From positions 1-39,579 of the forward strand of contig JAHEZD010000055.1 of assembly GCA_023251255.1 (NCBI GenBank): 39,579 bases of DNA. Reading direction: 5' to 3'. Origin of the DNA: Chitinophagaceae bacterium. Its GTDB lineage: Bacteria > Bacteroidota > Bacteroidia > Chitinophagales > Chitinophagaceae. The notes under the pieces are model-generated. The model was not told the DNA's origin and searched no databases. It saw only the letters and a program-made list of their open reading frames with translations. Shown in pieces: positions 14,768 to 39,579 of the stretch (positions are counted from its first letter, which is position 1; each line of letters starts with the position of its first letter). Made by a program: the position numbers and the translations under genes.

Positions 14768-15775
14768 TTATGGAAACTTCTTTACAACCGTTAACCGCAG
14801 AAATAACTCCATCACAACCAGCCCCAAACCCACTGCCAAAAACCAAAAATATTGGTCCGTAAACCTGCTATAAGTAGTTAATTGTACCTTCGTTTTTTCC
14901 AATTGATTGATACTTTGGTAAACATTCTTCAAAGCATCCTTATCTGCTGCATGGAAATATTGGCCACCCGTTTCTTCCGCCATATTCTTGAGAAGCCCTT
15001 CATTGAATTCCAGTTTCTTTTTTTGTGTTGTGGTACCAAATTCCGTCTGCACCTGCACATCCATTTCTTTGTTGCTGCCAACTCCAATCGTGTATACTTT
15101 TATACCATAAGTCTTGGCCATGTCCTTAGCAATATCTGGAGGGATCATTCCACCAAAATCAACACCGTCCGTCAACAAAACAATTACCTTGCTTTTTGAT
15201 TTGGAGCTCCGCAACCTATCCACGCTTGTAGCCACACCACTGCCAATAGCTGTACCCTCATCTTGTAAATAGCCACTTTGGATATTGTTGATTTGTGCAA
15301 GCACCGTATTATGATCAGTCGTTATTGGGCACATTGTAAAACTTTGGCTACTGAAAATGGTAACACCAATCCTATCACCGGGTCTATTCCTGACAAATTC
15401 ACTAGCAACTTCCTTGCTGGCTTCCAATCTGTTTGGTTGGAAATCCTGTTCTGTCATACTTCCACTGATATCAAAGCATAGAACGATGTCAATCCCTTCT
15501 CCATCGGTCTGCTGTTCCGTAAACTTATGCTGAGGCCTAGCCAAGGCAATAATCAATGCAGTCAACGCCATACAACGGAGTATGAAAGGCAGGTGACGCA
15601 TGCCCACTTTCCAACTTGTTCTTCGTTGTAGAAAATGTGTTGTGGTTACACTGAACGATGCCGTTTGCTGCTGGTGTTTTTTTACATGCCAATATATCAA
15701 CAAGGGTACAGCCAATAATAATGGCAATACCCAAGGATAAGCAAAAGTGGTATATGTGAACCATTTGTACAGCAT
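14768..15775 (-). CDS. batA: BatA-like von Willebrand factor type A membrane protein
   Basis: A 335-residue inner-membrane protein. The start is set at ATG 15775 (MLYKWFTYTTFAYP) over an upstream TTG. A transmembrane helix lies at about 14-30, a second at about 62-79 (FILRCMALTALIIALARP), then a VWA domain with an intact MIDAS motif DISGSM (D102, S104, S106) and the later T and D of LLTDGVDF. A third helix near the C-terminus (WFLAVGLGLVVMELFLRL) anchors it. This layout is typical of BatA of the Bacteroidota aerotolerance operon, which follows moxR and DUF58. The usual batB-E genes do not follow; rsgA does. The precise biochemical role of Bat proteins is unresolved. Confidence 0.85.
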   Translation of the reverse strand: MLYKWFTYTTFAYPWVLPLLLAVPLLIYWHVKKHQQQTASFSVTTTHFLQRRTSWKVGMRHLPFILRCMALTALIIALARPQHKFTEQQTDGEGIDIVLCFDISGSMTEQDFQPNRLEASKEVASEFVRNRPGDRIGVTIFSSQSFTMCPITTDHNTVLAQINNIQSGYLQDEGTAIGSGVATSVDRLRSSKSKSKVIVLLTDGVDFGGMIPPDIAKDMAKTYGIKVYTIGVGSNKEMDVQVQTEFGTTTQKKKLEFNEGLLKNMAEETGGQYFHAADKDALKNVYQSINQLEKTKVQLTTYSRFTDQYFWFLAVGLGLVVMELFLRLTVVKKFP

Positions 15776-15827
15776 AAATTCCTGTTGCAAGTGTAAAACA
15801 TTTTGAGTGCCTTAACCTAGCACTTGA

Positions 15828-16799
15828 CTATTGTTGATGTTTATAAAATCTATTAATGGTTTCAATAAAGTTCTTGGCAGAGCCGATAGCAATATCATCT
15901 TCTTCTTTGGATGGTATGAACTTGGCGAACTTCACTGCGTCGGCCAAACGAAGCAATTGAAAATACTGTACCTGCGTTGGCTCTGTACCTACCATCCCTT
16001 TCATGCTCAATAAATATTCGTCTGTGGTTTTATTGGATGTATTCACCCTTAGCTGTGTGTCGGAATAGATCCTGCAGATACTTACCAGTTCTGTATAAAA
16101 TAATTTCTGTTGTTTTTTCTCCAAAAGGTTTTTCTGCTGTAGTGCATCTATCTGTTGTAATGCCCAATCATAAGGGCTTTTGCTACTGTCTCTTGGGGGC
16201 TTTGCAACGATCCTTTTCTTTCTTTTAAAGAACCACCACCATAACCCTAATAAAACCAGTATCGATGCTGCAGCTATTGCAGCAATCACTAACCAATCAT
16301 TCTTTACATCCACTTCCAGAATATCCTTGATGTCATGGTAATCTTGCAAGGAACTCACATCAACTGGCAAAACGGCCACGCCTAATGGCAATGCTAAAAG
16401 TGACTGCTGGTTGTTCAATAAAATATTCAGTTCAGGAAAGGACCAATAGCCTGAATCGAAAGAAGTAAGCCTTATTTTCTGGATGAAAGTATAGGAGTCA
16501 TTTACCTTAATCGTATCAATAGGAAAACGCAACACCACTTCCAAATGATTGAACGTATCCGGTACATTGAACCACTTAACAATATCGACCTTGCCCCTAT
16601 CCAAATCCTCCACTTTCAATTGCAGTTCCACTTGCTCACCAATCAATATTTTTTCCCTATCGATTGTTGCTGAAACCTTTTGCGAAAAAGCAACAAGTCC
16701 GAAGTGAAGGGTGAATGTCAGCAACAGTACTTTCAACCAGTGATTTTTCACCAGTGATTGTTGACTATTGACCATTGACCATTGACTTCTTTCTATCAT
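15828..16799 (-). CDS. BatD-like membrane protein of the moxR/bat operon
   Basis: A 323-residue protein. I place the start at ATG 16799, which overlaps the DUF58 stop as ATGA. A signal-type helix lies at about 23-40 (WLKVLLLTFTLHFGLVAFSQ), preceded by residues encoded by a short tandem repeat. A periplasmic beta-rich region (about 42-170) begins KVSATIDREKILIGEQVELQL, as in BatD-type proteins. A transmembrane helix at about 173-192 (LVIAAIAAASILVLLGLWWWFF) is followed by KRKKR and a helical cytoplasmic tail of about 130 residues (DWALQQIDALQQKNLLEKKQ). It probably works with MoxR, DUF58 and BatA in the inner membrane. A GTG within the N-terminus (before KNHWLK) is an alternative start that would skip the repeat. 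Confidence 0.75.
   Translation of the reverse strand: MIERSQWSMVNSQQSLVKNHWLKVLLLTFTLHFGLVAFSQKVSATIDREKILIGEQVELQLKVEDLDRGKVDIVKWFNVPDTFNHLEVVLRFPIDTIKVNDSYTFIQKIRLTSFDSGYWSFPELNILLNNQQSLLALPLGVAVLPVDVSSLQDYHDIKDILEVDVKNDWLVIAAIAAASILVLLGLWWWFFKRKKRIVAKPPRDSSKSPYDWALQQIDALQQKNLLEKKQQKLFYTELVSICRIYSDTQLRVNTSNKTTDEYLLSMKGMVGTEPTQVQYFQLLRLADAVKFAKFIPSKEEDDIAIGSAKNFIETINRFYKHQQ
16737..16788. repeat. Degenerate period-7 tandem array across the 5' end of the BatD-like gene
   Basis: About seven 7-base units: CAGTGAT, TTTTCAC, CAGTGAT, TGTTGAC, TATTGAC, CATTGAC, CATTGAC (plus strand, from 16738). CCAGTGATT occurs twice, 14 bases apart. The array lies entirely inside the first codons of the BatD-like gene. 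Confidence 0.7.
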
Positions 16800-17665
16800 G
16801 CCCTTCGGATAAAAAATTGTTGCAAGGCCTTTACATAATCCTGCCCCGTGGCTATTTGCATTAAATCTGCCCCAGCCAAGCGGAATGTTTCCTTTGCATC
16901 TTCTTGAATTTGCATGAACTGGTTTTGATAAGCATACTTGCTCATTGGGTCGCTGGTATCCAACCAAACTGTCTTCCCAGTTTCCGTATCTTCCATTTGT
17001 ATTAACCCAATGTCAGGAAGCTTGGCGTCTGCCTTGTCATATACCTGCACACCAATTACATCATGCCTTTTTGCTGCCACTTTTAATGCACTGTGGTAAC
17101 CGGCATCAGCAAAATCGCTCAGTACAAATACAATGCTTTTGTGCCGAGTGATATTATTCAGGAATTGTAATGCTTTTACGATGTCTGTTTGCTTGCGTTG
17201 AGGCTGCTGTGTCAGTAGTTCACGAACCATGTACAGTACATGTTCCCTTCCTTTCTTGGAGGGAATATATTTTTCCACCTTATCGCTAAAAAAAATAAGC
17301 CCTGTTTTATCATTGTTGTTCAATGCACTGAAAGCTAGCACGGCACAGATTTCAGTCATCAATTCCTTCTTGCTTTGCTGGTATGTCCCAAACAAACTAC
17401 TGGCACTTGCATCCACCAACAAAAACACACTCAATTCCCTTTCCTCCTCAAACATCTTGCTATAAGTGCTGCTCATTCTTGCACTCACATTCCAATCTAT
17501 AAACCTTGGGTCATCTCCTGCAGCATACTCCTTCACTTCCTTAAAGCTCATGCCTCGCCCCTTGAATGCCGAATGGTATTCACCAGTAAATAAATGATTG
17601 GTCAGCTTCTTGCTTTTTATTTCCAATTCACGGACCTTCTTTACTATTTCCTGTGTTGTAAGCAT
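16796..17665 (-). CDS. DUF58 domain protein (VWA-like, MoxR partner)
   Basis: A 289-residue protein with the DUF58 signature: GEYHSAFKGRGMSFKEVKEYAAGDDPRFIDWNVSAR in pieces at about 28-63, then a VWA-like domain starting FLLVDASAS with D-x-S-x-S. FVLSDFADAGY at about 180-190 fits the metal-site loop. No clear transmembrane helices, so it is probably cytoplasmic or peripheral. DUF58 proteins pair with MoxR AAA+ ATPases. ATG at 17665. The stop overlaps the ATG of the next gene (ATGA), indicating translational coupling. Confidence 0.9.
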   Translation of the reverse strand: MLTTQEIVKKVRELEIKSKKLTNHLFTGEYHSAFKGRGMSFKEVKEYAAGDDPRFIDWNVSARMSSTYSKMFEEERELSVFLLVDASASSLFGTYQQSKKELMTEICAVLAFSALNNNDKTGLIFFSDKVEKYIPSKKGREHVLYMVRELLTQQPQRKQTDIVKALQFLNNITRHKSIVFVLSDFADAGYHSALKVAAKRHDVIGVQVYDKADAKLPDIGLIQMEDTETGKTVWLDTSDPMSKYAYQNQFMQIQEDAKETFRLAGADLMQIATGQDYVKALQQFFIRRA

Positions 17666-17726
17666 GTTCTTGTTTGTACTCAGTAGAGGTATTGCTATTA
17701 AACCAGTTAACTAATTTAACCTTCTT

Positions 17727-18725
17727 CTATGGCACCTGTATCGTTTTCAAAATATCATCCACCAGCATTTCACTCGTTACATTTTCTGCTTCTGCTTCAT
17801 AGGTTATGCCAATTCTGTGACGCATTACATCCTTGGCAATTGCCTTCACATCATCGGGAATGACAAAGCCCCGTCCATTCATAAAAGCATGGGCTTTCGC
17901 AGCCAAGGCCAGGTTGATACTGGCCCTCGGAGAGCCTCCGTAACTGATCATGGCCTTCATCCTTCCCAAACCATATTGATCGGGGTAGCGCGTAGAAAAA
18001 ACAATATCAATAATGTACTGCTCCACTTTTTCATCCATGTACACTTCACGGACCAAATTCTTTCCTATCAAAATTTCCTGTGTACTTACTATTTGATTGA
18101 TGGTTGGCACTGCTGCACCTTGCACCTGCTGGCGGATAATCATTTGCTCCTCCTTCCTATCAGGATAACCAACAACAACCTTCAACATAAACCTATCCAC
18201 TTGTGCTTCAGGCAAAGGGTAGGTGCCTTCTTGCTCCAATGGGTTTTGCGTGGCCAGTACCAAGAAAGGTTCATCCAGTTTGTACGTTTGCTCCCCAATG
18301 GTCACTTGTTTCTCCTGCATGGCTTCCAGCAATGCGCTTTGAACTTTTGCGGGGGCACGGTTTATTTCATCTGCCAATATAAAGTTGGCAAAGATGGGGC
18401 CCTTGCGAACTGCAAACTCGTTTTTGCTCTGGTTGTAAATCATGGTGCCTACAACATCTGCTGGCAATAGGTCCGGTGTGAACTGTATCCTACTGAACCT
18501 GCCATGAACCGCTTGGGCCAATGACTTTATGGTCAATGTTTTTGCAAGCCCGGGCACCCCTTCCAGCAGAACGTGGCCATTGCTTAACAAGCCAATCAAT
18601 AATCGGTCCACCATGTATTGTTGACCAACTATGACCTTACTTAGTTCAGTTTTGAGTTTCTGTACGAAAGCAGCATGGTACTGTATCTTTTCATTGAGCT
18701 GCTGTATGTCTTCGGCTGTTTGCAT
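17727..18725 (-). CDS. MoxR family AAA+ ATPase
   Basis: A 332-residue AAA+ chaperone-type ATPase that heads the bat operon. Start chosen at ATG 18725 (MQTAEDIQQLNEKI); an upstream TTG would add 14 residues. Walker A is GVPGLAKT at residues 56-63, and Walker B is ILADEINRAP followed by AKVQSALLEAMQE. Sensor 1 lies in FLVLATQNPLEQEGTYPLPEAQ, and the arginine finger is in the AQVDRF stretch. The C-terminal lid ends in RHRIGITYEAEAE. MoxR proteins are thought to help metal insertion or complex assembly with VWA-domain partners, which here are DUF58 and BatA. The gap to the DUF58 gene is 61 bases. Confidence 0.93.
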   Translation of the reverse strand: MQTAEDIQQLNEKIQYHAAFVQKLKTELSKVIVGQQYMVDRLLIGLLSNGHVLLEGVPGLAKTLTIKSLAQAVHGRFSRIQFTPDLLPADVVGTMIYNQSKNEFAVRKGPIFANFILADEINRAPAKVQSALLEAMQEKQVTIGEQTYKLDEPFLVLATQNPLEQEGTYPLPEAQVDRFMLKVVVGYPDRKEEQMIIRQQVQGAAVPTINQIVSTQEILIGKNLVREVYMDEKVEQYIIDIVFSTRYPDQYGLGRMKAMISYGGSPRASINLALAAKAHAFMNGRGFVIPDDVKAIAKDVMRHRIGITYEAEAENVTSEMLVDDILKTIQVP

Positions 18726-18920
18726 GGCTACTTTTTTAGAAGTGTGAATGTACAAAGTAGCGGCCAAAGGGAAATTTTGAAATGGTTTTATTGGGAAAAT
18801 TTTTGGAAAGGCAAAAGATGAAGGATTGAAAGCAGGAAAATCCTGGATGTTTTGTATTTGACACTCAAGGCATCAATAAAATAATTGGATTGTTGGAGCT
18901 TACTGTTAAGTACCAATATT

Positions 18921-35536: not shown

Positions 35537-35544
35537 TATTTTTG
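35537..35544 (+). promoter_or_regulatory. -7 element of the TrkA-RyR/TIR/nSTAND operon
   Basis: TATTTTTG matches TAnnTTTG, 37 bases before the ATG of the first gene. No clear -33 at the standard spacing. Confidence 0.5.
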
Positions 35545-35581: not shown

Positions 35582-37540
35582 ATGAGCTCTCACAAGCCCA
35601 ATGTAAAAGTAAATCCGGTCCTTTTTCCATTGATTGTAATACTAGTTTTTACATTGTCTTTCATTGGGCACCAAGCTTGGCTTCATCATGAGGGTAGGGA
35701 ATTCAGCTTTTTTGGTGTTGTATATGCAACACTGTGTTTCTTTTTGATGCACCACGTGGACCCTGTTCCAGAAAACACGTACATATTGGCAGCTCAATAC
35801 CTGGCCGCATTACTTATTTGCACCAGCATATTTTCATTGGTTTGGACAAAAGTAAAAAAGGCCTATCTCGTTTACAGGATTGGCATTACCTACAGGAACC
35901 ATATTGTTATCTTCAGGTTGAACAATATTGGAAAGACATTGGCTTTGGAATTGTTGAAAAAGGGATACAAGGTAATTGTGGTGGAAACAGATCAACAGAG
36001 CCCGTACATAGAAGCAGTAAAAGCCCATGGCGGTGTTGTGTTCACAGAAAAACCTTCTGATTTCAAAACATTGGGAATGGCTGCTGTTGGCCATTCACGC
36101 ATCTGTATTTTGACAAGCAATCGTGATGAAATCAACATTGAAATTGCTGGCAACCTTTCCAACTATCTGCTGAAGCATAGTCACAAGTCAAAGTCTGAAG
36201 CACACAAAATAATGGTTCACATCAACAATCCTGCAAACGAAAATATTTTGAAGGATTACTTTGACATTCACAATGAAGATGACCATTACGATTTGGAAAC
36301 CTTCAATGTGTATGAATCGGCTGCAAAAAAAATCTACGATACTTATACACCCTACAAATACATCAACCCATCTGACAAGGAATCTGAAAATGCCATTGCT
36401 GTTGTGGGGTTCAATGATGTAGCAGAATCCTTCATAGTGGAAAACATGATTTTGAGCCAGTATCCGGATACCGGTAAGCTTAAGATTTATATGGCCGATG
36501 AAAAGGCCGACGAACATTTCAATTACCTCAACTACAAGTACCCATACTTTCATGAATTCATTGAAATTATTCCAGTGAAACTTTTGAATGGAACATTCTT
36601 TGCCAATTTTACTTGGTCCAAAACGCATATTGAGAAAATGAGCAAGATTAAGGCGGCTTATTTCTTTGGACCCAAGGACGCAGACCTGATAACCGCTGCC
36701 GCAAGCTTCAGGCAGTTTCTCTACACACAAACATTGAGCATTACACAGGTGCCTATTATTGTTTGCTTACCGGAAGATACAGGCGTAATTGACTTATTGG
36801 ATAGCAATAGGCAATCAGGATATACGGTGAGCCAGGCTTTCAGTAGCAAATTGGGTATACAGACCTACAGGCTTATTACCAATACTTGCACAGCAGAAGG
36901 CTTAATAGAAGAATCGGAGTTTACCCATAAGCTCTCCAAAATGATTAACTTTTTCTATGCCATCAAATATGAATTTGCTTCATTGCTTGAAAGCAATTAC
37001 AACATAAAGAATGCTACTGCCATTGCAGATAAGTTGGAAAATGAATTGTTGTCATTTCCTGAAGGAAACAAACCAATGAACGAAAGGGAAATGGAAAAGC
37101 ATTTGTTATTGATGCTTGAAAAAGATACCAATATTTCCTACGACGAGCTTTACAAGTATTTTTCCATAGAAAAACATTGGCACCAATTGTCCTATCGTAA
37201 AAAGGACTCTAACAGGTATGCCGCAAGGCAAGTGGCCATGAAAGTCCACGCATTTAAGTATCTTGGCTGCTGGCCAATGACCAAGGAAAACATTACCAAG
37301 TTTTTCCCAAAGCTTGCACCTATTGAACATACCAGGTGGTGTGCAGAAAAAATGGTGTTCAACTTTAAGTATGGCCCTTATCCTGCAGATAAAACCGAGA
37401 AACTTTTGCTTAAAGAAGTGTTGAAGATTCATGACCAGTTGGTGCCTTATGAAAGATTGAGTGACCATGACCAAGAAAAAGACCTGAACATATTTTTGAT
37501 GGTACCAATACTGAACATGATTAAGTCCATAGCTGAATAA
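35582..37540 (+). CDS. Membrane protein with channel-like N-terminus, two TrkA-N/Rossmann-like domains and a C-terminal RyR domain
   Basis: A 652-residue protein. The N-terminal 90 residues hold a helix at about 13-34, a shorter hydrophobic segment at about 42-57 (SFFGVVYATLCFFLMHH) and a third at about 67-88, arranged like the TM1/pore/TM2 unit of RCK-gated channels, but no TVGYG-type filter is present (HHVDPVPEN instead). A TrkA-N/RCK-like Rossmann domain starts at about 106 (HIVIFRLNNIGKTLALELLKKG) with a degenerate glycine motif and an acidic strand end (VVETD). A second Rossmann-like unit starts at about 271 (AIAVVGFNDVAES). The C-terminus (about 581-640) is a RyR-type domain: IEHTRWCAEKMVFNFKYGP, then HDQLVPYERLSDHDQEKD. 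RyR and TrkA units in bacteria occur in nucleotide-linked conflict systems. The next gene (TIR) starts 27 bases after its stop. ATG at 35582. Confidence 0.85.
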   Translation: MSSHKPNVKVNPVLFPLIVILVFTLSFIGHQAWLHHEGREFSFFGVVYATLCFFLMHHVDPVPENTYILAAQYLAALLICTSIFSLVWTKVKKAYLVYRIGITYRNHIVIFRLNNIGKTLALELLKKGYKVIVVETDQQSPYIEAVKAHGGVVFTEKPSDFKTLGMAAVGHSRICILTSNRDEINIEIAGNLSNYLLKHSHKSKSEAHKIMVHINNPANENILKDYFDIHNEDDHYDLETFNVYESAAKKIYDTYTPYKYINPSDKESENAIAVVGFNDVAESFIVENMILSQYPDTGKLKIYMADEKADEHFNYLNYKYPYFHEFIEIIPVKLLNGTFFANFTWSKTHIEKMSKIKAAYFFGPKDADLITAAASFRQFLYTQTLSITQVPIIVCLPEDTGVIDLLDSNRQSGYTVSQAFSSKLGIQTYRLITNTCTAEGLIEESEFTHKLSKMINFFYAIKYEFASLLESNYNIKNATAIADKLENELLSFPEGNKPMNEREMEKHLLLMLEKDTNISYDELYKYFSIEKHWHQLSYRKKDSNRYAARQVAMKVHAFKYLGCWPMTKENITKFFPKLAPIEHTRWCAEKMVFNFKYGPYPADKTEKLLLKEVLKIHDQLVPYERLSDHDQEKDLNIFLMVPILNMIKSIAE

Positions 37541-37567
37541 AAAACTAAAGCCTTTACCAAAACTAAA

Positions 37568-39094
37568 ATGCAGTTTCAAAAAGATATATTTATCAGTTAT
37601 GCCCATATAGACGATGAGTCTCTGATTGCATCCCAAAAAGGATGGATTTCAGAATTTCACCGTGCCTTGGAAATAAGACTGGCACAGCTTTTAGGCAGAA
37701 GGCCGGTTATTTGGCGTGACCCATCCTTACAAGGCAACCATATTTTTGACCAGCAGATTGTAAGCCAGTTTTCGCAGGTAGCACTGATGATTTCCATACT
37801 TACACCACGTTATGTAAAAAGTGAGTGGTGCGTTAGGGAGGCCAATGAATTCTATGAAGCCTGTGAAAAGAATCTTGGTTTCAGTTTGCAGAATAGGGCA
37901 AGAATTTTTAAGGTTATCAAAACACCTGTTCGTGCAGACCTGCATCCTGAAAAAATACAGAATGTTTTGGGTTATGAATTTTACAGCACCGATCCAAGCA
38001 GCGGCAGGGTAAAAGAATTCGGCCAGGTATTTGGCCAGCAATCGGAAATTGCCTACTGGGAAAAATTGGATGACCTAGCTAATGATATTTGCTCCTTTTT
38101 GGAAGGAATTGAAAGCATTAACAGTGTTACTTCATCTGCTGGTGCCAACGCAGCCGATGCTTCTGCAGGAACCGTTACACCAAAGCAACGCAAGAAAATT
38201 TATTTAGCTGAAAGCAGTTATGACACGTTGGAATTCAGGGACAGCATTAAACGCGAACTGCAGGATTTGGACTATTCCCTTCTGCCCAATAAGCAGTTAC
38301 CATTGGTTGCCCCTGTACTCAATGCAGAAATAACACATTTCATGCAGGAAGCAGATTTGTCCATTCATTTATTGGGTTCAGGTTATGGTGTTGTTCCAGA
38401 AGGGACACAGAAATCAATCGTTGAAATACAGAATGAAATCGCTTCTGCACAAAGTGCAGCTAAGGGTTTACCAAGATTGATATGGATGCCTGAGAGCAAT
38501 ATGCCGACAGATGACCGTCAACAAACTTTTGTAGACAAATTGGCCAGTGGCAAGGAAGGCATTGCGGGTGCCGATTTGATTGTGGGAAGCCTAGAAGATT
38601 TCAAAAGTATAATTTCCGACAAGCTTAAGCGTTTAGAAGAGGAGAAGAAGCCTGAACCTGTAACACTACTTTCTAATGCAGCGGTTGCAAGTGAAAAGAA
38701 AGCGAAATTGATTTACCTTATTTGCGACATGCAGGATATGGACCTAATAAAACCTTTGGAAGATGTACTGTATGATAATGGACACGAAGTGGTTATTCCC
38801 ATTTTTGATGGTGAGGAATCGCAAATCCGGGAAGACCATATAGAGAACCTGAAAATATGCGATGCTGTAATTATTTTTTATGGCAATGCAAACGAACTTT
38901 GGTTAAGGAGCAAGATGAGGGACTTTTTGAAGATTAGTGGTTACGGCAGGGAGAAACCATTGGACATAAAAGCTGTTTATATTTCCCAACCAGACAATGC
39001 TTCCAAGCAGCGTTTCAGGTCAGTGGAAGCAGAAGTAATCAATGCAATCAATGAAGTACCAATCAATAAATTAAATACCCTGTTATCAAAATAA
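37568..39094 (+). CDS. Three-domain protein: TIR, DUF4062-like and a second TIR/Rossmann-like domain
   Basis: A 508-residue soluble protein. The N-terminal TIR domain covers about 1-180: DIFISYAHIDDES at 6-18, then the catalytic-type motif S-x-W-C-x-x-E at 85-91 (E91 the putative NADase Glu). A Ser/Ala/Gly linker (about 184-204) leads to a DUF4062-like unit at about 209-355: KIYLAESSYDTLEFRD, then HFMQEADLSIHLLGSGYG. The C-terminal unit (about 378-495) reads KLIYLICDMQDMDLIKPLEDVL, then CDAVIIFYGNAN, again a TIR/Rossmann-like pattern but without a WCxxE motif. Neighbours: 27 bases from the TrkA-RyR gene, 12 bases to the nSTAND1 gene. It is probably the effector, cleaving NAD+ or making a cyclic nucleotide signal; which of the two is inference. 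Confidence 0.85.
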   Translation: MQFQKDIFISYAHIDDESLIASQKGWISEFHRALEIRLAQLLGRRPVIWRDPSLQGNHIFDQQIVSQFSQVALMISILTPRYVKSEWCVREANEFYEACEKNLGFSLQNRARIFKVIKTPVRADLHPEKIQNVLGYEFYSTDPSSGRVKEFGQVFGQQSEIAYWEKLDDLANDICSFLEGIESINSVTSSAGANAADASAGTVTPKQRKKIYLAESSYDTLEFRDSIKRELQDLDYSLLPNKQLPLVAPVLNAEITHFMQEADLSIHLLGSGYGVVPEGTQKSIVEIQNEIASAQSAAKGLPRLIWMPESNMPTDDRQQTFVDKLASGKEGIAGADLIVGSLEDFKSIISDKLKRLEEEKKPEPVTLLSNAAVASEKKAKLIYLICDMQDMDLIKPLEDVLYDNGHEVVIPIFDGEESQIREDHIENLKICDAVIIFYGNANELWLRSKMRDFLKISGYGREKPLDIKAVYISQPDNASKQRFRSVEAEVINAINEVPINKLNTLLSK

Positions 39095-39106
39095 CAACCT
39101 CAACCA

Positions 39107-39579
39107 ATGCTAACAGATACAAATATTTTTAACCCATTCCCAGGTCTTCGTTCTTTTGAGGAGAACGAGGACGTGCTATTTTTTGGAAGGGAAAAACAAG
39201 TGGATGAGCTGGTGAAGAAGCTAAGGCTTGTTAAATTCCTAGCGGTTATTGGTTCATCGGGCAGTGGTAAATCTTCATTGGTAAAATCAGGACTGATTCC
39301 ATCATTGCACAGTGGTTTTATGTCTGGAGCGGGCAGTAATTGGCGCATTTGCACATTTAGGCCAGGCAACAACCCTGTTGGGAATATGGCCAAAGCTCTA
39401 GCTGCAAAAAATGTATTGTATGATAACCTTGAAACAGAAGAAGACGAGTTTACTTATACCTCCATTAATGAAAGTACATTAAGAAGAAGCAGTCAGGGTT
39501 TAGTGGAAGTGTACAAACAAAGTGGCATTAATACAAAAAACAATCTCCTCATACTCGTTGACCAGTTTGAAGAGATTTT
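39107..39579 (+). CDS. nSTAND1-type STAND NTPase, N-terminal 157 residues (cut by window edge)
   Basis: ATG at 39107, 12 bases after the TIR gene; the frame is open to the window edge. The start NPFPGLRSFEENEDVLFFGRE (residues 9-29, in pieces) is the hallmark of nSTAND1 proteins. Walker A is GSSGSGKS at 49-56 and Walker B is LLILVDQFEE at 147-156. STAND NTPases are large signal-dependent switches, often with C-terminal WD40, TPR or other repeats as ligand sensors; that part lies beyond the window. Probably the sensor/regulator that turns on the TIR effector. There is no effector domain fused at the N-terminus, which fits a separate TIR protein. Confidence 0.88.
   Translation, partial: MLTDTNIFNPFPGLRSFEENEDVLFFGREKQVDELVKKLRLVKFLAVIGSSGSGKSSLVKSGLIPSLHSGFMSGAGSNWRICTFRPGNNPVGNMAKALAAKNVLYDNLETEEDEFTYTSINESTLRRSSQGLVEVYKQSGINTKNNLLILVDQFEEI

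What the first reader, a model, noticed from the sequence alone, without database searches (positions are those of the whole stretch)
35582..39579. Candidate three-gene conflict/signalling system: TrkA-RyR membrane protein, triple-domain TIR protein, nSTAND1 NTPase
Three genes lie 27 and 12 bases apart on one strand, with a promoter element in front. Seen: a membrane TrkA-N-like/RyR protein, a TIR protein with an intact S-x-W-C-x-x-E, and an nSTAND1 start. Known: TIR NADases and STAND NTPases act in bacterial immunity, and RyR and TrkA-N units appear in nucleotide-centred conflict systems (recalled, not checked). Inferred: nSTAND1 senses a trigger, the TIR protein destroys or converts NAD+, and the membrane protein responds to the product through its Rossmann/RyR parts, perhaps by disturbing the membrane. 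I do not know this exact trio as a named defence system.
Basis: partly seen in the sequence, partly recalled or inferred. Interest (0 to 1): 0.88.

Follow-up and report, generated by a model that had tools for sequence, protein, structure and literature searches.

The report
TIR operon with RyR-domain membrane protein
A bacterium carries an operon in which an enzyme that probably makes a signal from NAD+ sits beside a channel-like membrane protein bearing the domain by which animal ryanodine receptors bind such molecules, so a signalling link long debated in animals may have a simple, testable bacterial counterpart.

Summary
The three genes are real. Gene A (35582-37540): membrane segments, K+-channel-like RCK/TrkA unit, second Rossmann-like unit, ryanodine-receptor (RyR) domain. 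Gene B (37568-39094): TIR with intact S-E-W-C-V-R-E, DUF4062, third alpha/beta domain. Gene C (39107->): nSTAND1 NTPase, continued on the next contig with a hydrophobic segment, coiled-coil-like stretch and WD40. Same-strand TonB receptor, PhzF, GNAT and carrier genes follow. The trio recurs contiguously in two other genomes (in one of them without detectable WD40); in a third, A-B and C are apart. B-C is an older pair whose membrane neighbour varies: A, SLATT/DUF4231, or a carrier-like protein; in the carrier group the TIR glutamate is lost. A-like proteins sit directly beside a TIR gene in 9 of 12 genomes (0.02 expected; one of the nine decayed). A's RyR domain keeps four residues that a 2026 preprint places at the 2'/3'cADPR site of a phage RyR protein. 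Best reading: C senses, B makes a cADPR-type signal, A reads it and disturbs the membrane: Thoeris-like logic with a new effector. Defence, chemistry and channel activity are untested. The preprint cataloguing TIR systems was not readable; priority is open.

The parts
35537..35544 (+). TATTTTTG, candidate -7 promoter element (Bacteroidota type, consensus recalled)
   Evidence: 38 bases before the ATG; no TTTG at the usual upstream spacing
35582..37540 (+). Gene A: membrane segments - TrkA_N/RCK - second Rossmann-like unit - RyR, 652 aa; putative signal-gated effector
   Evidence: secondary structure of a low-confidence model; single copy in genome at E <= 0.001
35597..35857 (+). A residues 6-92: hydrophobic segments 6-36 and 66-92 with a weaker 41-62 between; region aligns with TM1-pore-TM2 of a K+ channel, selectivity filter not kept
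   Evidence: hydropathy; HMM alignment to L156; L156 is Ion_trans_2 + TrkA_N
35903..36256 (+). A: TrkA_N / RCK domain (res 108-225)
   Evidence: Pfam 1.7e-10
37286..37489 (+). A: RyR domain (Pfam res 569-636) holding H583, W586, H617, D634
   Evidence: (below cut-off)
37568..39094 (+). Gene B: TIR - DUF4062 - third alpha/beta domain, 508 aa; putative NAD+-processing signal maker
   Evidence: single copy in genome at E <= 0.001
37820..37840 (+). B: S-E-W-C-V-R-E motif, E91 the presumed catalytic Glu
   Evidence: Glu present in 10 of 85 aligned B proteins and in L165, none of them from the carrier-linked group
38195..38428 (+). B: DUF4062 (res 210-287)
   Evidence: 0.008 here, above cut-off in L025 and L165
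39107..39579 (+). Gene C, 5' part: nSTAND1 NTPase, Walker A GSSGSGKS (res 49-56), Walker B LLILVD (res 147-152); continues in contig C153 (locus L003, codons from base 199 to the stop at 2814): rest of nSTAND1, hydrophobic segment, coiled-coil-like stretch, WD40
   Evidence: about 1028 aa by adding the lengths of the two pieces; orthologue L169:8436-11525 is 1029 aa

Best explanation
A Thoeris-like TIR signalling system with a new kind of effector. C (nSTAND1, here with WD40) detects a trigger through its C-terminal part and oligomerises on ATP. This brings the TIR protein B together and switches it on. B's first TIR domain converts NAD+ into an ADP-ribose-type signal, most likely 2'cADPR or 3'cADPR. 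The RyR domain of A binds it, and the RCK/membrane part of A opens or rearranges, depolarising or permeabilising the inner membrane and stopping the cell or the phage. Shown here: domain make-up, conserved catalytic and ligand residues, gene order, recurrence of the trio, and the A-TIR linkage. Inferred: trigger, activation by oligomerisation, identity of the signal, channel opening, and defence as the purpose.
For: Trio contiguous in the window, in L042 (recorded as Chitinophagaceae) and in L165 (another family of the window's class, B 50% identical); in L041's genome A-B (L041) and C (L169) are separate. In a tree of 27 of 86 B sequences the four A-linked B proteins form one clade, support 0.992. 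An A-like protein is directly next to a TIR gene in 9 of 12 genomes, 0.023 expected; in 5 of the 12 it is the genome's only TIR_2 hit at E <= 0.001. After collapsing lineages it is 6 of 7, or 5 of 7 if family f17 is represented by one of its two negative members instead of G177 (one search used G177). Partners differ (TIR-WD40, TIR-Fib_succ, TIR-Sel1, TIR-DUF4062 + nSTAND1), so the link is to TIR itself. RyR residues H583/W586/H617/D634 are all present in 8 of 12 A-like proteins; all 8 are TIR-adjacent, one of those TIR genes being decayed. In PMC13232231 (parts 1-2 of 6 and passages read) H75/W78/H100/D117 contact the ligand, with the same H+3-W and H+17-D spacing. The TIR Glu is kept in all four A-linked B proteins. 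The N-terminal part of A is homologous to 2TM-RCK K+ channels.
Against: No activity tested. The K+ selectivity filter is not kept and the L165 homologue has only one hydrophobic segment at the N-terminus, so a classical pore is doubtful. Pfam does not see RyR in the L165 homologue at 0.01, nor WD40 in the L165 C protein at 0.001. All four RyR residues are kept in only 8 of 12; three of four in L152, one of four in L038, L153, L154; L038 is TIR-adjacent all the same. H and D of the tetrad are also RyDEP's catalytic dyad, so A might destroy the signal. No defence island around the genes in the window; PADLOC gives only weak hits, best 2.5e-4. In 75 of 85 B proteins, those of the carrier-linked group, the TIR Glu is absent. 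The AlphaFold model of A is poor (pLDDT 52).
Confidence: 0.55

Rival explanations
1. NAD+ depletion: B is itself the executioner (like Swarozyc or SARM1), activated by C; A is only a co-transcribed K+/redox regulator that responds to the changed NAD(H) or ADPR pool.
For: Single-domain structural matches of B are SARM1, AbTir and plant TIRs, plus SPARTA TIR-APAZ chains; DUF4062 is reported as an NADase family (PMC13174449); TrkA_N/RCK domains bind NAD(H) (recalled); in the genome scan B has A beside it in 2 of 79 loci only.
Against: Does not explain why A-like proteins keep to TIR genes of quite different architecture or why the cADPR-contact residues are kept in the A proteins of the trio loci. 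The DUF4062 Glu column is not conserved even among close relatives (S in L042, D in L102).
Confidence: 0.15
2. A is the brake, not the effector: a membrane-held RyR protein that hydrolyses or soaks up the TIR signal (as phage RyDEP does) and keeps B's activity in check.
For: H and D, the RyDEP catalytic dyad (H75, D117), are both present in A. In PMC13232231 six of eight tested phage homologues bound 2'/3'cADPR, the homologues other than RyDEP did not cleave it, and the two studied further acted as sponges; no RyR effector is described in the parts read.
Against: A has membrane segments and two Rossmann-like units that a sponge does not need; it is the first gene in front of B, the place taken by SLATT/DUF4231 membrane proteins in L031, L043 and L157.
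Confidence: 0.12
3. Not immunity: a stable envelope or nutrient signalling cassette in which TIR-DUF4062, nSTAND1-WD40, an outer-membrane receptor and a carrier-like protein act together, with A as a regulatory variant.
For: Gene order carrier - B - C - outer-membrane protein is kept in most of 79 scan loci (carrier 72, C 75, OMP/TonB 67), most of them recorded as Cyclobacteriaceae, Flammeovirgaceae or Cytophagales; the TIR Glu is lost there; the window genes are followed by TonB receptor, PhzF, GNAT and a carrier related to those.
Against: Glu kept in all 11 aligned B proteins outside that group; B is patchy in the phylum (10 of 296 genomes, own included); SLATT neighbours and a Caballeronia plasmid copy resemble conflict systems.
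Confidence: 0.13

Closest known systems
Thoeris (TIR ThsB + effector)
   Same: TIR protein with intact S-x-x-C-x-x-E beside a protein with a candidate ADPR-signal-reading domain; four TIR partners of A-like proteins also match Pfam ThsB_TIR
   Different: Effector has TrkA_N and RyR, not SIR2-SLOG or macro domain (those effector types from the title and abstract start of PMC11204291); separate nSTAND1 gene
Swarozyc (DUF4062 NADase)
   Same: DUF4062 domain in B
   Different: In B it sits between a TIR and a third alpha/beta domain; no HTH/winged C-terminal domain seen
TEP1/NWD1-type DUF4062-NACHT-WD40 proteins
   Same: Same three ingredients: TIR-like domain, STAND NTPase, WD40
   Different: Split over two bacterial genes, with nSTAND1 rather than NACHT
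SLATT/DUF4231 nucleotide-centred conflict operons (grouping recalled)
   Same: Order membrane protein - TIR/B - nSTAND1 with WD40 in Caballeronia plasmid L157, and SLATT/DUF4231 - B - C in L031 and L043
   Different: A takes the place of the SLATT protein in the window group
Phage RyDEP / animal RyR R12 domain
   Same: RyR family and the four ligand residues
   Different: Fused to RCK and membrane segments; a cellular gene beside TIR, not a phage evasion gene
2TM-RCK K+ channels (MthK/GsuK-like, names recalled)
   Same: TM-pore-TM-RCK order and homology over A residues about 17-200
   Different: Selectivity filter lost, RyR domain added

Membership tests
Thoeris | TIR protein with catalytic Glu | tested here: met
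   S-E-W-C-V-R-E, E91; TIR matches of the model at probability 0.99-1.00 but E 1.5e-3 or weaker
Thoeris | Effector of a known ThsA type (SIR2-SLOG or macro domain) | tested here: not met
   Pfam of A up to E 0.1: TrkA_N, RyR, DUF7648 only
Thoeris | TIR makes a nucleotide signal that activates the effector, giving phage defence | not testable with these tools
   needs biochemistry and phage assays
TIR systems of Yirmiya et al. 2025 (doi 10.64898/2025.12.03.692087) | Listed there with a RyR/TrkA effector | not tested
   paper not held; only its title seen in reference lists
Swarozyc | DUF4062 domain | tested here: met
   below cut-off in window B, above it in L025 and L165
Swarozyc | Conserved DUF4062 Glu | tested here: inconclusive
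   E at the column in the window, S in L042, D in L102; the match to KpSwz E97 could not be aligned
Swarozyc | C-terminal portal-binding HTH/winged auxiliary domain | tested here: not met
   third domain of B is alpha/beta in the model; no HTH hit
STAND defence NTPases (Avs-like) | STAND NTPase with Walker motifs and C-terminal repeats | tested here: met
   nSTAND1, Walker A/B, WD40 in the window gene; WD40 not seen in the L165 relative
STAND defence NTPases (Avs-like) | Effector fused at the N-terminus | tested here: not met
   nSTAND1 begins at residue 10 of C
2TM-RCK K+ channel | TM-pore-TM followed by RCK | tested here: met
   profile alignment to channel L156; for window A only, L165 has one hydrophobic segment
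2TM-RCK K+ channel | K+ selectivity filter | tested here: not met
   filter of L156 aligns with a non-matching stretch of the A profile
RyR-domain signal binder | Four ligand residues (H, W, H, D with H+3-W and H+17-D spacing) | tested here: met
   H583, W586, H617, D634; all four in 8 of 12 A-like proteins

The most novel reading that the evidence does not exclude
A bacterial TIR-cADPR-RyR axis: a TIR enzyme makes a cyclic ADP-ribose isomer that directly gates a membrane protein through a RyR domain, using the residues shared with animal ryanodine receptors. This would be a new effector class of TIR immunity and a minimal counterpart of the disputed cADPR-RyR link in animals, with the STAND sensor encoded separately and the membrane effector exchangeable (RCK-RyR or SLATT).
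Probability: 0.38. Interest if true: 0.92.

Novelty: new variant of a known kind. Interest (0 to 1): 0.78.

Why it matters
Whether cyclic ADP-ribose acts directly on ryanodine receptors has been argued over for decades (recalled). PMC13232231 (May 2026) showed that RyR domains of phage proteins bind 2'/3'cADPR and said this supports future studies on animal RyR receptors. Here a bacterial gene cluster pairs a TIR enzyme with a channel-like RyR protein that keeps the same contact residues, and A-TIR pairings recur in several lineages. That makes the question testable with small soluble domains, and points to an effector class for TIR signalling that I did not find named in the paper listings I saw.

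Tried and rejected
Known defence models: PADLOC gave only weak hits for A, B and the C piece. Plasmids: A none; B two Caballeronia records at 23% identity. Viral contigs: no relative of A or B confirmed (short peptide patterns, so close relatives only). Cyanobacteria: 65 of 244 genomes matched A's profile at E <= 1e-15, every listed match lying within model positions 1-232 (channel/RCK part), so not A; B in 1 of 146 at E <= 1e-20, the centre genome itself. Fold of A: model too poor to search. Idea that DUF4062 is the active site of B: dropped, because its Glu column is not conserved among close relatives. Idea that the trio is the conserved unit: dropped. Genes of 561 aa in L033 and L032 that I first took for SLATT are RNase E/G; the SLATT relatives there lie divergently on the other side of B. 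Literature: searches showed no paper joining a RyR/TrkA membrane protein with TIR. Some listings were capped (20 of 42, 25 of 125, 15 of 67, 10 of 69), and the library holds open-licence papers only.

Rows dropped before counts: L080 (my ORF picker lost B, so 79 of 80 loci). RyR-only and channel-only hits were not counted as A-like, and not all partial hits were fetched; the 12 A-like genomes are those in which both RCK and RyR parts align. G034 first looked TIR-less by ORF picking; the family search applied to all 12 genomes showed a decayed TIR there, counted as adjacent. The tree used 27 of 86 B sequences: all 11 that keep the TIR Glu and 16 of the 75 that lack it. The 12 genomes are not independent (three share the window's subfamily, two a genus, three are f17); the collapsed 6 of 7 takes G177, the positive one, for f17.

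Full report
What is there. Three + strand ORFs, 35582-37540, 37568-39094 and 39107->end, are separated by 27 and 12 bases. A and B are open throughout and occur once in the genome at E <= 0.001. The window is the whole of contig C149; its last 201 bases match the first 200 bases of contig C153 with a one-base length difference. On C153 (L003) the nSTAND1 frame runs from base 199 to a stop at 2814: rest of nSTAND1, a hydrophobic segment and a coiled-coil-like stretch (both by eye), and WD40 repeats. It is followed on the same strand, with gaps of 3-92 bases, by a TonB-dependent receptor, a PhzF-like protein, a 184-aa protein that I read as GNAT by eye, and an 858-aa carrier (MFS_1 below cut-off) that is homologous to the TLC/HEAT/cNMP carriers described below. 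If this is one operon, it has at least seven genes; that is inferred from strand and gaps across a contig break, but L169 shows C, TonB, PhzF, GNAT and carrier contiguous on one contig.

Gene A. TrkA_N is clear; RyR is weak in the window copy but passes the cut-off in L035, L036, L037 and L151 and is found by profile and by sequence against solved structures. In the L165 homologue Pfam does not report it. The N-terminal 92 residues hold two strong hydrophobic segments and a weaker one between, and the region aligns with the TM1-pore-TM2-RCK part of the channel L156 (Ion_trans_2 + TrkA_N), although the selectivity filter is not kept. The AlphaFold model is poor (pLDDT 52, 3 sequences); its secondary structure follows the order three helices, Rossmann-like, Rossmann-like, helical end.

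The RyR ligand site. PMC13232231 (bioRxiv, May 2026; parts 1-2 of 6 and passages read) reports that a phage RyR-domain protein binds and cleaves 2'/3'cADPR, with H75, W78, H100 and D117 at the ligand, and that these residues are shared with animal RyR R12 domains. In A the pattern H583-(+3)-W586 ... H617-(+17)-D634 has the same H-W and H-D spacings; the W-H distance is longer. All four residues are kept in 8 of 12 A-like proteins, three of four in L152, and one of four (D) in L038, L153 and L154. The correspondence rests on motif, spacing and HMMER alignment to animal RyR chains, not on alignment to RyDEP itself, whose sequence I did not have.

Gene B. First domain: TIR with S-E-W-C-V-R-E. In Foldseek only 4 matches reach E <= 0.001, all with TM-scores of 0.23 or less (GsuK, two helicase-complex chains, plant NLR RPP1); the TIR matches (SARM1, AbTir, MyD88, TLR, RPP1 and RUN1 TIR domains; SPARTA TIR-APAZ chains) have probability 0.99-1.00, E from 1.5e-3, and TM-scores of about 0.45-0.63 on single TIR domains. 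Second: DUF4062. Third: an alpha/beta domain without a family name. In 85 aligned B proteins the TIR Glu is present in 10 (window, L041, L042, L043, L102, L028, L029, L030, L031, L033) and absent in 75, one of which is a gap; L165, added later, keeps it. The DUF4062 Glu column is E in 7 of 85 and already S in L042.

Recurrence. A genome scan with B (80 loci kept of 89 relatives) and neighbourhood analysis: C lies just downstream of B in 75 of 79 loci, 3 of the 4 misses being contig ends; A is upstream in 2 (L041, L042). In the loci from the genome search, C followed B in 8 of 10 foreign places. Contiguous A-B-C: window, L042 (its C crosses a run of N), and L165 from another family of the same class; L165's C has nSTAND1 at 3.5e-97 but no WD40 at 0.001. 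In L041's genome A-B are without C, but a 1029-aa C lies elsewhere, followed by TonB, PhzF, GNAT and carrier. The four A-linked B proteins form one clade (support 0.992), next to the two cyanobacterial ones (0.629).

Exchangeable partner. Where A is missing, B-C often has another membrane protein beside it: SLATT/DUF4231 on the same strand in L031, L043 and Caballeronia plasmid L157, and divergently in L032 and L033; or, in 72 of 79 scan loci, a carrier, which in L025 shows TLC ATP/ADP-transporter and HEAT domains and a sub-threshold cNMP-binding domain. In L028-L030 and L102 I found none of these adjacent by phmmer.

A goes with TIR. Full-length A-like proteins are rare: 5 of 395 phylum genomes and 3 of 345 class genomes (two are the same as before), own genome included in each. 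In 12 genomes with A-like proteins, looser ones included, a TIR_2 gene is directly adjacent in 9; in G089 it is the third gene away, with a NACHT-FGE protein next to the A-like gene; in G354 and G378 none was adjacent, on short contigs. Chance expectation is 0.023 genomes (gene number estimated as genome size/1050). After collapsing lineages it is 6 of 7 with G177 standing for f17, 5 of 7 otherwise. The partners differ in architecture: TIR-WD40 (G002, G013, and a decayed one in G034), TIR-Fib_succ (G216), TIR-Sel1 (G177). The functional pairing is therefore RyR membrane protein with TIR; STAND or WD40 parts are the likely sensors.

Setting. Twenty-four other window ORFs were scanned with Pfam. 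Best hits are housekeeping or generic (peptidases, RNase Y, tRNA synthetase, cytidylyltransferase, TonB receptor, sigma factor, RsgA, Bat-type MoxR/DUF58/BatA genes and the like). Two carry secondary, weaker hits to families named after conflict systems (bpMoxR on the MoxR protein, GT4-conflict on a glycosyltransferase). PADLOC was run on A, B and the C piece only.

Mechanism. The simplest reading is sensor (C), signal maker (B), signal-reading membrane effector (A). Thoeris works in this way (abstract start of PMC11204291), and PMC13174449 (outline, parts 1-2 of 6 and passages read) speculates on WD40 sensing, NACHT oligomerisation and TIR-like activation for TEP1. The weak points are the lost K+ filter, the one-segment homologue in L165, the possibility that the H/D pair of the RyR domain hydrolyses the signal (then A would be a brake), and the TIR-dead cassette, which suggests that B-C can have a non-catalytic role.

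Novelty. I did not see it as a named system in the listings, some of them capped. The preprint most likely to contain it (Yirmiya et al. 2025, seen only as a title) is not held. I rate it a new variant of a known kind (TIR nucleotide signalling) with an unusual effector. Earlier comparative-genomics papers on nucleotide-centred conflict systems (Burroughs et al. 2015) may have noted RyR and TrkA domains (recalled, not read); the 2020 eLife paper PMC7159879, searched for words only, has neither.

Noticed in passing
L044-L120 (except L102), e.g. L050: Syntenic cassette, mostly in genomes recorded as Cyclobacteriaceae, Flammeovirgaceae or Cytophagales: carrier (TLC/HEAT in L025) - B - nSTAND1-WD40 - outer-membrane barrel - ~430 aa unknown - ~1450 aa fn3 protein; the TIR Glu is lost in all 75 of its B proteins aligned. 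Looks like a domesticated TIR-STAND signalling unit.
   Followed up: partly
L003:2907-9558: TonB receptor, PhzF, GNAT-like and carrier genes follow C on the same strand; the carrier is homologous to the cassette carrier (6e-39) and the TonB receptor shares a piece with an outer-membrane protein of the cassette (1e-11).
   Followed up: partly
L126-L146 (many with open frames of about 880-940 aa): Many genomes of one unnamed genus (g49, family f17) carry long proteins matching only the RyR end of A; two read in full (L039, L040) have a P-loop-like motif ahead of it. Possible further RyR-based conflict proteins.
   Followed up: no
L152:6594-13715: A differently built set: 906-aa TrkA_N-RyR protein (RyR below cut-off), NACHT-FGE protein, a 247-aa methyltransferase-like protein (by eye), TIR-CSD protein.
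   Followed up: partly
L037 / G034:C65:146231-146599: The TIR gene beside the A homologue is decayed (stop inside; a WD40-like remnant follows), while A is open; its close relative G013 has an intact TIR-WD40 gene.
   Followed up: partly
window 39379-39579 and L003:1-200: Contig break inside the nSTAND1 gene: the overlapping ends differ by one base in length, probably an assembly-end error.
   Followed up: yes
window 14768-18767: Bat/aerotolerance-type gene run: BatA/VWA protein, DUF58 protein, MoxR-type AAA ATPase (which also has a weaker hit to bpMoxR of MoxR-vWA-beta-propeller conflict systems).
   Followed up: no
L157:5647-13047: Caballeronia plasmid pSBC1_3 holds DUF4231 - TIR/B-like (annotated as two ORFs) - nSTAND1 with WD40-like repeats, so the B-C core with a SLATT-type partner also occurs in a betaproteobacterium.
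   Followed up: partly
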